Origin: Chamaelirium japonicum
Lineage: Eukaryota; Streptophyta; Magnoliopsida; Liliales; Melanthiaceae
Direction of reading: 5' to 3'
Assembly: GCA_947650365.1 (NCBI GenBank)
Contig: OX393550.1
Coordinates: 48,559,955 to 48,623,954, forward strand
DNA length: 64,000 nucleotides
Position numbers and translations under genes: made by a program. Under the pieces are notes generated by a model that ran no database searches, was not told where the DNA came from, and saw nothing but the letters and a program-made list of their open reading frames with translations. This document shows, piece after piece, positions 19,201-55,200 of this stretch. How positions within the stretch are numbered: the stretch's first letter is position 1; each line of letters starts with the position of its first letter.

Positions 19201-22200
19201 TCAGAAATTGTACCACACGCTCCATAATGATGGCGGTTACATCATACCCCATTACCATCGTTCAAACGAGCGATGTTATGTGTGGGTGCAAAATTTTGCC
19301 AAAGACACCCGTGAACCAATAATGACGAAAGTGGGACGTCCCAGTCTTGCTTGGGATCCACAGTGACAGTGGGATCCTCCAGCCCTACCTAGGACCCAAG
19401 ACGACAAAGGTGGGACCCCCCAGACCTGCTTGGGACCCACGACGATTACAATAGGACCCCCCAGCCCTGCCTTGGACCCATAACGATGGTGGGACCCCCA
19501 GCCCTGCTTGGGACCCACGATGATTGTGGGACCCCCAGCCCTGTCTGGGACCTACGACGAGAGCCCGGGGCTCGGTGACTCGCCTACAAAAAACCACCCC
19601 GGGACTCGACGGCTTCCAAACCTCTATAAATAGGAGGGCCAACACATATTCCAGATTGGATTCTTATTCGATATCCAAATTTTCATTCCAGAGATCTTTC
19701 CTCACTTTCTTGAGTTGCAGAGCTCAGATAAAGAACTGATCTCCTTTTCACCCCCTACCTTCTTTTCTTTGATTGCTTGTATAAGTGACGCTTGATCTGT
19801 CGAGGTTACTCTACATTTCGGAGATAATGGATTCAACGTTGCGTCTTATTGCACGGAGACAGGCTTCAGTTGAACTTCGTCACCACATCATTGTGTCTAC
19901 TCTACTCTCTACTCTACACTCTACGCTCTACAGTGCCGACTTTACAGATCAACACACTATAGTGGAAGCGCACTCAAGATTCTACTCGTATTCTATTGAT
20001 TGTTGGTGGAAAACTGTACGATGATCAAAGTTCCCCCCTTAGCATGGCATAAAACTCCGCTACCGACTCTCGACCTGTTGTCCTTCGACTCAAGGTCAAG
20101 AGTGGGCTAATATAGGTGGGAGTTTCTGCTAGCCGTCTAGAAGACGACACATGGCATGTTTGGGTGTACACGGTACATGATGCATGGTCCTCCTGACTTA
20201 CCCACCATGCCTCACCCAAGGTAACAGGCCCGATAGCTCGACCAGCTCGATTGGACATCCTCACACTAAGTCAGGATACCCGTGCCAGCTATGACCACAA
20301 CATGTATTAACCGTTGATGCTAGGTGAGTCATCCCTCCTTGCTGGGGGATCGACCTCATGTGACACGGCACACTACCAACCAGGATTCACCCTGAGGAGA
20401 TTGAGCCATATCCCAAACAGATCTGCCAGCCTGGGTAATGCCTATGTTCAAGACGTTCGTTATGGGTCTAACTTAGCAAGGAGTAATCACGAATTTTCAA
20501 TCATTGCACGCGATAGAATCCATGATAACTACCTCACACGATCTCCGCGATCATAACAACGATTACGACGTTGTGGTTGAGATCCACGGAACCACCCGTG
20601 ACACCTTTCAACTATAAATAATTGCCCTCTCTTAGAGGGCTAAGGACGCAAGTCGCTACACATCGACTTTATTCTTTGAATTCTTCTTTCTTCTCGTCTG
20701 ACTTGAGCGTCGGAAAGATTTTAGCTCGAAGAGAGACTCGGTCTTCTTGCAGGTCGGAAAGGAGAGATTGGAGCAGCCATCTATTGCTTACCGGGGGTGT
20801 GCTGTATGGAAAATACACCCACATCCCACATCTACTTCACTATTTTTTCTAAATAAAGACCCTATTGGCTGAAATAAAAACTAGAAAATCCTAAGACTTA
20901 ACAAAACATTAATCTTAAGACCTAGAGTATAGAAAAACACAGAACCCATAATTTTTGATTCGCATGACCCCCCCAATTGGTGCTGCATCGGTATCACTCT
21001 TTAAAGGCGTTGAAGTCAATTTTCCGCTTCCAAGAAGTATATGTTATTAACTATTCCGACAAGCATTCAACATGTAATGCTACTGTACTCTGGTTTTTGC
21101 CTGAAAATACACCCACATCTACTTCACTATTTTTTCCTAAATAAAGACCCTATTGGCTGAAATAAAAACTAGAAAATCCCAAGACTTAACAAAACATTAA
21201 TCTTAAGACCTAGAGTATAGAAAAACATAGAACTCATAATTTTTAATTCGCATGACCACCCCATTTGGTGCTGCATCGGTATCACTCTTTAAAGGCGTTG
21301 AAGTCAATATTCCGCTTCCAAGAAGTAGATGTTATTAACTATTCCGACAAGCATTCAACATGTAATGCTACTGTACTCTGGTTTTTGCTGCATCGGTATC
21401 ACTCTTTATTGTTGTTTTTTTTTCTTCCTTTTTTGCTGTTGTGTCACACATGCTTACCAAATGTTTGCTATTTTGAGGAGGTGTATTTCCATCCCTTTGC
21501 AACGGATTATGGAGTTGACTCGTTACTCTCTTGCCAAAGCTTTTCTTTGTTGCTTCATAGAGCGCCACTTTGTAGTAACCCTGTTGTGCAAGTGCAACGG
21601 ATGTATTTTCCTTTACTTTACTAACATCTACTTGTCTGCAACTGATTTTTAAGAGCATTCTCTTTTTCAGTTCTCTTATTGTTAAATAAGTCTCATATCT
21701 TGTCGTGAACAGAATTTGTGTACTTATATATTGTTATTTATTACAGATCCCTAATCATGTTGCTATTAAGATTGCTCTCGAGCTCAAAAAACTGCTTATA
21801 GACAACAGCCTTCTTGATGTGTATGCTATCCTAAACCACTCTTTTCATTAAGTTTCCTTGATATTTGTCAAATTTATGAAATAGGTACCCATATCATTTC
21901 CTCTTTGGGAACGTGTGTTTTCACTTGCTTCAGTTGACATTTATTGAAGGGATGTATGTCGAACAAAGCTAGGGTTGGTGTGCATTTTGGTGCATGAGGG
22001 AATATTTTTCATCAAAACAGTTATATATATATAGGGGCATGCTATGCTGCGGCATGCGGTACGTGCGGCACCGCACCGCAGCCGTCTGATGCACCCACTG
22101 CGTGCATCGCATGCACGCAGCGGTGCATCAGACGGTTGCGGTGAGGTACCGCACTTACCGCATGCCGCATTATAGCATTTCTCTCTCTCTCTCTATATAT

Positions 22201-52200: not shown

Positions 52201-55200
52201 CATTTTGGTACCTTAAGTCTGTCTCGCTCGTCTATGTCAACAATTGACGGAGCCCCTTTCCTCTGTGAATCCTGTTCCGAGTTTGTTGATGCGATCAATT
52301 ACCGTTCACAAAACGGGAAGTAGGTGGGGGGTGTGTGTGTGTATGTCCTTTTTGTCAACTTTTATTATGGGACATACAAAAATGTTAGCTGCATCATATA
52401 CAATACAAGAAGTATGTCTTAGTCGCATCTGTGAAATACTAGCATGATATCTACCACTCGAAAATTATTTTACGTGACATGAGGTCCGGATTCAAGATGT
52501 TTGGCTATGCCGTTGGGGAGAAAGGGAGATGAAAGCTCTTACAATTCATTTTCTTGCAGCTTTAACCTGTTTCTGAAGCAAGTTAATTAAGGTAGTTTTG
52601 TGTCAGGTGACTTACACTACAAGTCTTGTTACATGATTTGGCTACCAGAGACTGAAAGATCTTTCATAACCCTTCATAACACACTAAAAAAATTGCTATC
52701 ATATTCTCATCCATGGTCAGTCTTGGAAGAAGAATTAGACAACATCCAACATATAACTAATAATAATCGTTGCTATTGAGATGCTGGATCTTGATTAGAC
52801 TTCTGTAAAAGTTTTGTAGATAGTTTTCACAGGCAGGCACGTGCGCGCGCGTGCACACACACACAATTTATATATAGGGAAAAGATTGCCTCCATACGTT
52901 CGGAGGGGACTTACCTTCATATGCGATGAGTTGATACACCTAGGAGTTTTAGAATGTGCTGATTTTTTGTGAAGATAAGCACCTTACCTTAGATAGAACA
53001 CCTACAAAAAATCAGCACATTCGAAAAATTCTAGGGGCATCAAATGTTAGAATTCAAATTAACGGTTAGAACGGACGGTCGATAAAACTTCTAACATTTG
53101 ATGCCCCTATGAGTTTTATAATGTGCCAAATTTTTTGTGAGTGTTCTATCTAAGGTAAGGTGTTTATAATCACAAAAAATCAACACATTCTAAAAGTCCT
53201 AGGTGCACCAAATTTTTGGTATATGGAGGTAAGTTTCCTCCGAATGTCTGGAGGCTCCCTTTTCCCATATATATATATATATATATATATATATATATAT
53301 ATATATATATATATATATATATATATGTGTGTGTGTGTGTGTGTGTGTGTGTGTGTGTGTGTGAAAAAGGAGCCTCAATATGTATGGAGGGAAACTTATC
53401 TCCATATGAAGTGATTTCATGACCCATGAGACTCCAACGAAGGTGATTCTTTTTTGAGAATAATCACCTTATCTTAGATAGAACACATGCCAAAAATCAT
53501 CACATTTGGAAAATTATAGGGGCATCAAATATGATGTTCAAAATTAACAGTTACAATGGACGACCGATAAAGTTTCTAAAATTTGATGCCCTAGAAGTTT
53601 CCAAATGTGTTGATTTTTGGCTTGCATTCTATCTAAGATAAGGTGATTATCCTCGAAAAAGAATCACTTTCATTAGAGTCTCATGGGTCATGAAGTCACT
53701 TCATATGGATTTCCCTCCATACGTATGGAGGCTCCCTTCTATATCCAAGTGACCATGGATTTAACGATTAGACTTAATGCTCATAGCTAAGGGCTGGAGG
53801 TTTGGGATCTTCGCTCATATGGCTGCGTGAGGATTATTGTTACATCATTAGTAGATATTCATCATTAGGCCTATATATATATATATATATATATATATAT
53901 ATATATATATATATATATATATATTCATCATTAGTGGATATAGAATTGTTAAAGGAACCTTGGAACTTCTGTAGGCACATTACTTTGTATAATTAAGACT
54001 AAGTCACAAAGGAATGAAACTGTGGAATCGAAATACCACATTGTCCAGGTATTTTTTAGACGACAAGATCATCATGAAAAAGAATGATGTGATTTTAATG
54101 ATGTGATCCTTTCGCCATTCTATTAAAGGAGTCTTTAGTGTACATGTATACTTTATGGGTCTAAGATTTGTATTGATCCTCAACATCATTGGTCACAATG
54201 TCTGATAGTATGCCTCTCGACCAAGGATACAATGCCCAACTCGTTGATAAACTACTGAGCCAAATAGCCTCCTTTTTCGCCTTCGAAGTTGCTACATATT
54301 TATCTTCATATGTAGAGTAGTTGATGCAACTTCATGCTATGCCAAGTAATGACCCCTACATTATGGATGACAATATTTCCCAAATATGACAGCATGTTGT
54401 TCGAGTCGGCTTGGTTATCTCCATCAAAATACCCAACTTCCTCCATGTGACCCTTACATCTACCTGCATATAATCCTTAGTATCTCAGGAATACCTCAAG
54501 ATTTGTGCTTGTTAGAGGATGTCCTGATTTTGCTTTAGAAGCGAGTCACTATTCAAAATGTGGATCATATGTCGTGTCAAGCACACAACATGTCTTTCAA
54601 AATCCTTATGGCGAGGCATAAGGAACTTTCTTCATATACTTGATGTCTTCCTCTGACTTAAAGATTCGTGTCATAAGACATTAATGACTTATATCAAGCT
54701 AACGAGTCTTTTGTGTCTCTCGCTCCACAATTTTATGCCAAGTATGCAGATGCTTCCCTTAGAAATTTAAGGCCGAGTATGTAGGATGCCTCCCTTGAAT
54801 CTTTTATCACAAAAGTGGTGAGATAACAACAGTTAAGACATGGATCTTATGTTGTCCACATGAAGTACCAAGAACATCGATAATAGTATAATACCCCCAT
54901 TGACTTTGTTATCCACGTAGGTTAGGTGCTTAGGTTTCATCTGATTGCTGGACAAAATCAGATATCTTGATCACTTGGTCAAACATTTTATTCCATGTCT
55001 GAGAAGCTTGAGGTTGTATGTTGAACTTCTATCACACTCTTTTTGCTCAGATCAAGGAGAGATGAATCCCTCAGGTTGGGATATATCATATATGGAGTCC
55101 TCCTATGACAGATAATTATCGTAATCTATACTATAATAATAAAATGGAGCTTTGGAGCCGTGGGCCATGTAGGAGCTAAGGTCGTGCCACGTGGAGCCCC

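What the first reader, a model, noticed from the sequence alone, without database searches (positions are those of the whole stretch)
22034..53740. Modular superfamily of foldback elements living inside (TA)n tracts
At least twelve foldback families or copies (A-L: 22034, 22298, 22562, 23028, 23445, 25620, 37141, 37633, 38052, 38678, 38947, 39387, 39772, 39942, 52877, 53363) sit directly between (TA)n tracts, often with (CT)n on one side. Most start GGG or GG right after (TA)n and end in CCC before the next. Families B, C, E, F, H, J, K and L share an inner half-arm (TTTTAGAATTTG, GATCATCCTCAC) and a centre related to ACGGTCGATAAAGCTTCTA or CCGCAGTCACCGTTAA, while outer arms are quite different. 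Shared core with swapped outer arms suggests mosaic formation, for example by template switching at (TA)n. The rice 'micron' family also resides in (TA)n; a multi-family modular set is not something I know as described.
Basis: partly seen in the sequence, partly recalled or inferred. Interest (0 to 1): 0.88.

Follow-up and report, generated by a model that had tools for sequence, protein, structure and literature searches.

The report
Mix-and-match hairpin transposons in TA repeats
A plant genome carries many small foldback jumping elements sitting in TA repeats that share one inner core but wear different ends, so core and ends have been exchanged at least once; such elements in TA repeats are a known kind, the exchange seems to be a new variant.

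Summary
Of 17 units at 22034-53740, eight (B, C, E, F1, F2, H, J, K) share a core of about 260 bp; the 64 kb holds exactly eight core copies. Their outer ends, 53-64 nt, are mostly unrelated: core similarity is significant in 28 of 28 pairs, end similarity strong in 2 of 28. The window's own genome (unnamed plant, 1.52 Gb) agrees: 62 cores (8 window, 54 near B loci) carry at least 14 end types. Cores at least 90% identical have unrelated ends in 26 of 85 pairs. F-ended cores are not one clade (AU p 2.5e-8; 5.4e-4 without loops). So core and ends were separated. Which part moved is open: either a B-clade core replaced the core of an F element (tree support 100/97; L005 keeps both side-specific F ends), or the B lineage changed both ends (B-end monophyly not rejected, p 0.054-0.196). 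Non-nested multi-family arrays in (TA)n are published (SaTar, Ac-mMITE, carrot MiMs); core/end chimaeras are known in Drosophila Galileo. New variant of a known kind. Mutator membership is untested: no target-site duplication seen, transposase search unanswered.

The parts
22034..22180 (+). A1: A-family foldback (GC-rich, no core), (TA)6 left, (CT)7(TA) right
22299..22417 (-). A2: diverged A-family copy, (GA)29 left, (TA)n right
22560..22946 (+). B: core element, ends GGGCTGTTAC / GAATGTTAC, (GA)20 and (CT)17 flanks; high-copy family (3433 first-look candidates, 40 scored)
22622..22885 (+). core of B
   Evidence: nhmmer
23028..23396 (-). C: core element with GGTCAGGATCGG-type end; the only one of 42 typed cores with the loops of its two arms in opposite orientation (10 unclear)
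23089..23340 (-). core of C
   Evidence: nhmmer
23445..23844 (+). D: AT-rich foldback without the core
23946..25512 (+). X: 1.57 kb bounded by (TA)39 and (CT)17(TA)36; left edge resembles the C end (35 nt, 86%), no core; no matching right end seen by eye
25620..25694 (+). A3: deleted A-family copy
37142..37542 (+). E: core element, right flank (CA)9(TA)45 (unit ends at 37524)
37205..37463 (+). core of E
   Evidence: nhmmer
37633..38023 (+). F1: core element, F-type ends on an F1-lineage core
37696..37959 (+). core of F1
   Evidence: nhmmer
38052..38629 (+). G: long GC-rich foldback without the core; its first ~35 nt look like the ends of weakly matching core elements in L002, L011, L028 (by eye; core scores 56-62 bits)
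38678..38815 (+). A4: A-family copy
38947..39347 (+). F2: F-type ends on a core closest to B-ended cores
39010..39283 (+). core of F2
   Evidence: nhmmer
39386..39660 (+). I fused to an A-type end (A5'); the last 41 nt are the exact inverse of the start of A6
39776..39918 (-). A6: A-family copy
39941..40312 (-). H: core element
40004..40248 (-). core of H
   Evidence: nhmmer
52876..53267 (-). J: core element, GGGAAAAG tips, short TA run left, (TA)29(TG)19 right
52939..53203 (-). core of J
   Evidence: nhmmer
53364..53740 (-). K: core element with J-like outer ~44 nt, (TG)19 left, no microsatellite right
53424..53686 (-). core of K
   Evidence: nhmmer

Best explanation
These are non-autonomous, microsatellite-resident foldback MITEs of the SaTar / MiM / MuTAnT kind, most likely Mutator-derived (inferred, not shown). 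Eight window units belong to one superfamily: tip + about 60 nt type-specific outer arm + a core of about 260 bp (hairpin, centre, hairpin) + mirrored outer arm. Shown: core and ends have been separated at least once, with the boundary at the core edge; intact copies have matching ends; hairpin loops, and the core relative to the ends, have flipped; one arm has probably overwritten the other at least once; between such events copies inherit side-specific differences, so they spread as whole units. Inferred and favoured, but not decided: exchange occurs by ectopic gene conversion or template switching between foldback elements during repair, the core of one element replacing the core of another between its unchanged ends (B-clade core into an F element). 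The alternative, replacement of both ends in the B lineage, is nearly as likely. Dispersal is probably by a transposase acting on the tips, with (TA)n as preferred target.
For: Separation: B-F2 cores 89% identical, F1-F2 77%, yet F1-F2 share ends (z 15.1) and B-F2 do not (z 1.8). F1+F2 rejected as a core clade: AU p 3.8e-5, 5.9e-5 without loops. F-ended rows rejected as one clade: p 3.3e-6 (5 of 42 rows), 7.3e-5 without loops, 2.5e-8 and 5.4e-4 (6 of 66 rows). Of 85 pairs with cores at least 90% identical 26 have end z below 4. Core replacement: F2, L027, L005, L002 lie inside the B-end clade with support 100/97 (100/99); L005 has F-like ends and a B-like core (outside 79-328, 48 of 52 group-specific sites match F1; inside, 39 of 40 match the B-ended group); its left end has the F1 L-form in 10 of 14 diagnostic columns (R-form 1), its right end the R-form in 11 (L-form 1); its ends are closer to F1-lineage elements than its core is (82 against 75%, p 0.18; 86 against 76%, p 0.03). 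Matching ends: of 51 non-query cores bounded on both sides 47 have left/right z of 8 or more, 4 have 4.0-7.5. Resets: GGGCTG at both tips in 5 B-type copies, GAATG at both in 3, one of each in 9; F2 ends R-form 8 and 9, L-form 3 and 2 of 14. Loops of 42 cores: FF 15, RR 16, FR 1, unclear 10. Precedent: Galileo copies with both ends of one subfamily and the centre of another (PMC3573991, passages).
Against: The direction is not settled. B-ended rows as one clade are not rejected: p 0.105, 0.054, and 0.196 without loops. If they are one clade, F ends are simply ancestral, L005 is unrecombined and keeps its side-specific ends by descent, and it is B that changed both ends; the L005 ends-versus-core contrast is weak (p 0.18 and 0.03). 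Core identity between F1 and B lineages is only about 77%, low for homologous gene conversion. The strong conflict is one event; overall the end type changes 15 times on the core tree for 14 types (minimum 13), so most types follow the core and their origin is unexplained. Own partner arm is nearest in only 8 of 62 elements (7 of 67), so arm homogenisation is not continuous. Outside the window the loci came from two searches with B. No duplication in unique DNA and no transposase seen.
Confidence: 0.55

Rival explanations
1. End replacement: the B lineage (and others) kept its core and acquired new outer arms, one side first, the other arm then being rebuilt by foldback copying; the outer breakpoint could be a (TA)n tract.
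For: B-end monophyly not rejected (p 0.054-0.196), which makes F ends ancestral. Mirrored differences between B and F2 (9 of 120 columns, 0 side-conserved, 9 other) fit rebuilding of one arm from the other at subfamily birth. Fused elements with unlike halves exist: I/A5', L024_2595, L033_2426. At least one arm reset is likely.
Against: Branch support places F2 inside the B-end clade (100/97; 100/99). No intact copy with clearly unrelated ends among 51.
Confidence: 0.4
2. Simple divergence: outer arms evolve much faster than the core, so one family only looks like many.
For: Outer-arm length is nearly constant (median 64, interquartile range 62-66, 72 of 102 ends within 60-68 nt) although sequences are unrelated.
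Against: Ends of one type diverge about as much as their cores (F1-F2 ends 68-80% over 45-63 nt, core 77%). L027 and L028 have cores 95% identical and unrelated ends.
Confidence: 0.08
3. Nested insertion: the core is an independent MITE that inserted into the centre of different foldback elements.
For: Core edges are sharp and alike; G-like ends occur with a weakly matching core (L002, L011, L028) and without (window G).
Against: No direct duplication at the core edges by eye; the palindrome runs through them. Insertion exactly at the centre in every family is unlikely. No core outside such elements in the window.
Confidence: 0.08
4. Tc1/mariner-type (Stowaway-like) elements with ordinary TA duplication, TA tracts growing later.
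For: 18 of 19 TA tracts abut units.
Against: Flank phase, read by eye, is odd in F1, F2, J and even in H, the four units whose two tips could be aligned; a 2-bp TA duplication predicts even. Weak. Tips are GG-rich; the Stowaway tip CTCCCTCC is recalled.
Confidence: 0.08

Closest known systems
SaTar elements (guayule, rice, sorghum, citrus; PMC5907723)
   Same: Small TIR elements of several families between (TA)n and other microsatellites, in non-nested arrays, with occasional fusions by deletion
   Different: Described as arrays of unrelated families; the sections read and a term search of the main text (no 'shared', 'chimer' or 'conversion') report no shared core and no core/end exchange; supplements not readable
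Ac-mMITEs of pineapple (PMC8449440)
   Same: (TA)n-resident high-copy clustered MITEs; GA/TC tracts explained by slippage at the ends
   Different: There two families share the distal TIR; here many end types share the interior
MuTAnT (Medicago; PMC4486113)
   Same: Foldback of four similar segments, GGGG/CCCC tips, (TA)n target
   Different: One family with two subfamilies, 9-nt duplications and an autonomous partner shown; no exchange of cores in the results and discussion read
Galileo of Drosophila mojavensis (PMC3573991, passages)
   Same: Foldback element with chimaeric copies, including both ends of one subfamily around the centre of another
   Different: P-superfamily, long TIRs, 7-bp duplications; 12 copies have two unlike ends, whereas none of 51 intact copies here clearly has
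Micron (rice; rSaTar2)
   Same: (TA)n-resident MITE
   Different: Known here only through passages or sections of PMC5907723, PMC8227079 and PMC12550479

Membership tests
SaTar / MiM (microsatellite-associated MITEs) | Terminal inverted repeats, a few hundred bp | tested here: met
   Self-inverted alignments for A1, A2, A4, A6, B, C, D, E, F1, F2, G, H, I, J, K, units of 119-578 bp; A3 and X are truncated or not foldback
SaTar / MiM (microsatellite-associated MITEs) | Flanked by microsatellite, mostly (TA)n | tested here: met
   18 of 19 TA tracts abut units; 51 of 62 non-query cores have microsatellite within 120 nt on both sides, 1 is cut by a locus end, 10 lack it on at least one side
SaTar / MiM (microsatellite-associated MITEs) | Arrays without one element interrupting another | tested here: met
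   No window unit is seen interrupted by another (read by eye); one pair is fused (I/A5'). Not counted outside the window
Mutator-like elements (MULE) | 8-11 bp target-site duplication | tested here: inconclusive
   No full-length copy in unique DNA with a duplication among the sampled loci; flank phase odd in 3 of 4 informative units, compatible with 9 bp
Mutator-like elements (MULE) | MULE transposase on an element with the same ends | not tested
   PF10551 search of the genome was asked 14 times and never answered; Pfam on 30 selected window ORFs showed none
MuTAnT | Four similar segments (foldback within each arm) | tested here: met
   Within-half inverted repeat z 3.7-18.4 in both halves for B, C, F1, F2, G, H, J; weaker in E (2.8, 4.7), D (1.7, 3.1), K (2.3, 0.4); absent in I; A mostly low (up to 5.3 in one half of A4)
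MuTAnT | GGGG/CCCC tips | tested here: inconclusive
   Many tips begin G or GG after the TA tract but vary (GGGG, GGGAAAAG, GGGTCGGG, GAGTAGTG)
Tc1/mariner (Stowaway) | 2-bp TA duplication | tested here: inconclusive
   Phase even in 1 of 4, odd in 3 of 4 informative units
Galileo | P-type transposase and 7-bp duplication | not tested
   Compared for mechanism only

The most novel reading that the evidence does not exclude
The core behaves as a module in its own right that spreads from family to family of microsatellite MITEs by conversion, at a nearly fixed spacing of about 62-66 nt from whatever tip it is given; new MITE families in this genome are founded by core replacement plus arm reset rather than by deletion of autonomous elements.
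Probability: 0.15. Interest if true: 0.8.

Novelty: new variant of a known kind. Interest (0 to 1): 0.5.

Why it matters
How new MITE families and new end sequences arise is open. Here a single genome holds many end types on one core, with cores up to 95% identical carrying unrelated ends, and with arm resets and loop inversions as separate, countable events. A genome-wide survey could decide whether cores move between ends or ends between cores, and how often. It also warns that classifying such MITEs by ends or by interior gives conflicting families.

Tried and rejected
L005 is therefore not a certain recombinant.

Arm homogenisation inside every element: suggested by the 16-arm tree (B 91/87, F2 93/89, K 100/100 pair by element) and by mirrored B-F2 differences, but in the larger set the own arm is nearest in 8 of 62, and most close pairs looked at show side-conserved rather than mirrored differences. 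Kept as episodic reset. C as a chimaera of two core lineages: its loops point in opposite directions, so the split is largely a loop inversion. J/K conflict: J+K already a weak clade (60/57); p 0.34 without loops, 0.295, 0.012 with 66 rows. Hairpin inside the outer arm: p below 0.05 at both ends of B, E, F2 and one end of F1 and K; not at C, H, J. B-type tip on an A-family element in L010: 10 exact nt, dropped. Correlation of core-arm with outer-arm identity across the eight: none (p 0.53). Rfam: no match at gathering score. Exact core words in viral and prokaryote contigs: none. Literature searches for exchange of ends or shared cores gave only Galileo as a close case; open-licence papers only.
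Full report
What is there. Three clusters (22.0-25.8 kb, 37.1-40.3 kb, 52.9-53.7 kb) hold foldback units joined by dinucleotide tracts. Of 19 merged (TA)6+ tracts in the 64 kb, 18 abut a unit. All-against-all alignment separates an A family (six copies or pieces), single units D, G and I, and a group of eight (B, C, E, F1, F2, H, J, K) that align with each other mainly over positions of about 55-70 to 310-337 and mostly not at their ends. 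A profile of the eight cores finds exactly these eight places in the window; the next hit has E=3.

Anatomy. Each of the eight is: tip, outer arm of 53-64 nt, an inner arm that is itself a hairpin in most of them (stem CCTAGAAGTTTTAGAATTTGATG..., loop about 28 nt; degenerate in K and weak in C and E), a centre related to TTTATCGACCGTCC...ACCGTTAATTTT, and the mirror image. This resembles the 'four similar segments' of MuTAnT (PMC4486113 results). Loops point forward in both arms of E, J, K, reverse in both arms of B, F1, F2, oppositely in C, and are unclear in one arm of H. Among 42 cores: FF 15, RR 16, FR 1 (C), 10 unclear on at least one arm.

Core against ends inside the window. Core similarity is significant in 28 of 28 pairs; outer-end similarity is strong only for F1-F2 and J-K. 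Simulated ends diverged as far as the cores would have been seen for pairs with core identity of about 70% or more. B and F2 share 89% of the core, F1 and F2 77%, while F1 and F2 share ends. The core data reject F1+F2 as a clade (p 3.8e-5; 5.9e-5 without loops). The groups were chosen after the ends had been seen, so these are not blind tests.

Copies in the genome. The window lies in a 1.52 Gb unnamed assembly. A cyclin ORF has its best named hit in Musa (73%); other named hits are monocots and other flowering plants, so the plant is not identified. Two searches were answered: B whole (84 matching rows, 40 of 3433 candidates scored) and the B end (41 rows, 40 of 1355 scored). The 30 B loci of the first search show a microsatellite at both ends by eye. 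With duplicates dropped, 49 loci plus the window (223 kb) contain 132 core copies, 109 near full length; 47 of these are queried B copies, 62 others (8 window, 54 elsewhere). Of the 62, 51 have a microsatellite within 120 nt on both sides, 1 is cut by a locus end, 10 lack it on at least one side. In 47 of the 51 the two ends are clearly alike (z at least 8), in 4 z is 4.0-7.5. A permissive single-link rule gives 14 end types, so the true number is likely higher. Outer-arm length stays at a median of 64 nt (72 of 102 ends within 60-68) across unrelated types; I cannot explain this.

Core and ends separated. On the 42-row core tree, F-ended F2, L027, L005 and L002 sit inside the B-end clade (100/97) and F1 outside it. 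F-ended rows as one clade are rejected (p 3.3e-6; 7.3e-5 without loops; 2.5e-8 and 5.4e-4 with 66 rows). Of 85 pairs with cores at least 90% identical, 26 have unrelated ends; L027 and L028 have cores 95% identical with F-type and B-type ends. The pairs are not independent. Overall the end type changes 15 times on the core tree for 14 types (minimum 13); besides type 3 (p 1.7e-4), types 6 (p 0.012) and 2 (p 0.037) reject monophyly. So the strong case is one exchange between F- and B-ended lineages; the other types mostly follow the core, their ends having changed on older branches.

Which part moved. Reading 1, core replacement: L005 has F1-like ends around a B-like core. Among sites that fit one of the two groups, 48 of 52 outside 79-328 match F1 and 39 of 40 inside match the B-ended group; its core spans 67-340, so the boundaries lie at the core edges. 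F1-type elements have distinguishable left and right ends, and L005 keeps the L-form on the left (10 L, 1 R, 3 other of 14 columns) and the R-form on the right (11 R, 1 L, 2 other). Its ends are nearer to F1 and L032 than its core is (82 against 75%, p 0.18; 86 against 76%, p 0.03). Reading 2, end replacement: if B-ended cores are one clade, F ends are ancestral, L005 has simply kept them, and B changed both ends. B-end monophyly is not rejected (p 0.105; 0.054, and 0.196 without loops). Branch supports favour reading 1, the AU tests leave reading 2 open. I favour reading 1 slightly.

Other rearrangements. F2 (W_39010) has mainly the R-form at both ends (8 R, 3 L; 9 R, 2 L), although L005 and F1 have two forms; L027's typed end is R-form too (10 R, 1 L), L002's is L-form (10 L, 2 R), L024_2050 leans to R at both ends and L045_1745 is mixed. 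In B-type copies typed at both tips, 9 have one GGGCTG and one GAATG tip (5 with GGGCTG on the left of the centre, 4 on the right), 5 have GGGCTG twice and 3 GAATG twice. So one arm has probably overwritten the other at least once, and the core has turned round relative to the ends. Within subfamilies, differences between arms are inherited by side (for example 22 side-conserved and 0 mirrored columns between E and L039), so copies normally spread as whole units.

Mechanism, inferred. Conversion or template switching between foldback elements during repair would give the exchanges; foldback templating inside one element would give resets and inversions. The same class of event is proposed for Galileo (PMC3573991 passages). 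What moves the elements is not shown. Microsatellite-associated relatives are described as Mutator-derived (PMC5907723, PMC8449440, PMC4486113). Here the odd flank phase in 3 of 4 informative units is compatible with 9-bp duplications and argues weakly against plain TA duplication; no full-length copy in unique DNA with a duplication was seen; the transposase search did not complete. GA and CT tracts sit between unit ends and (TA)n and vary among B copies, which fits the slippage explanation given for pineapple.

Known or new. Multi-family, non-nested arrays in (TA)n are published. I found no report of one core shared by many end types in such elements (searches; open-licence papers only; supplements not readable). 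Verdict: new variant of a known kind.

Noticed in passing
window 39620-39660 and 39776-39816: 41 of 41 nt inverted copy on both sides of (CT)10(TA)25(GA)22: the A-type end fused to I is the exact mirror of the start of A6, while other A copies are more diverged. Could be a local foldback duplication centred on the (TA)n tract, or two insertions of one young subfamily.
   Followed up: partly
window 23946-25512: C-like end on 1.57 kb of DNA bounded by (TA)39 and (CT)17(TA)36; may be a truncated element next to old sequence or a larger element.
   Followed up: no
outer arms of core elements, window and fetched loci: Outer-arm length is nearly constant (median 64 nt) across unrelated end types.
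   Followed up: partly
L045_1745 and L024_2050: F-like tips with a different hairpin inside the outer arm, changed in both arms (by eye); suggests the outer arm itself is made of exchangeable pieces.
   Followed up: no
L024 around 2595, L033 around 2426: Fused elements joining halves of different types (B-type end with a GGATCCGTTGACAACC-ended element; H-like half with a B-type element), read by eye.
   Followed up: partly
L012_1029, L048_348, L033_1945 and L029_2998, L043_937: Core copies with a further core-like stretch on one side instead of a microsatellite; look like longer subfamilies with extra arms.
   Followed up: no
window 20825-21388, 34307-35009, 46014-46953, 59923-60183, 12881-13119: Two-copy direct tandem duplications with 94-99% matches (units 124-470 nt), suggesting recent local duplication.
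   Followed up: no
window 47338-48451: 65-nt tandem array of 17 copies, 80% matches.
   Followed up: no
window 4081-4752 (-): ORF with a plant cyclin domain (PF08613, E 1.9e-17); best named hit cyclin-P2-1-like of Musa.
   Followed up: partly
window 53872-53923: (TA)26 tract with no element next to it, about 130 nt from K; possible empty target or remnant.
   Followed up: no
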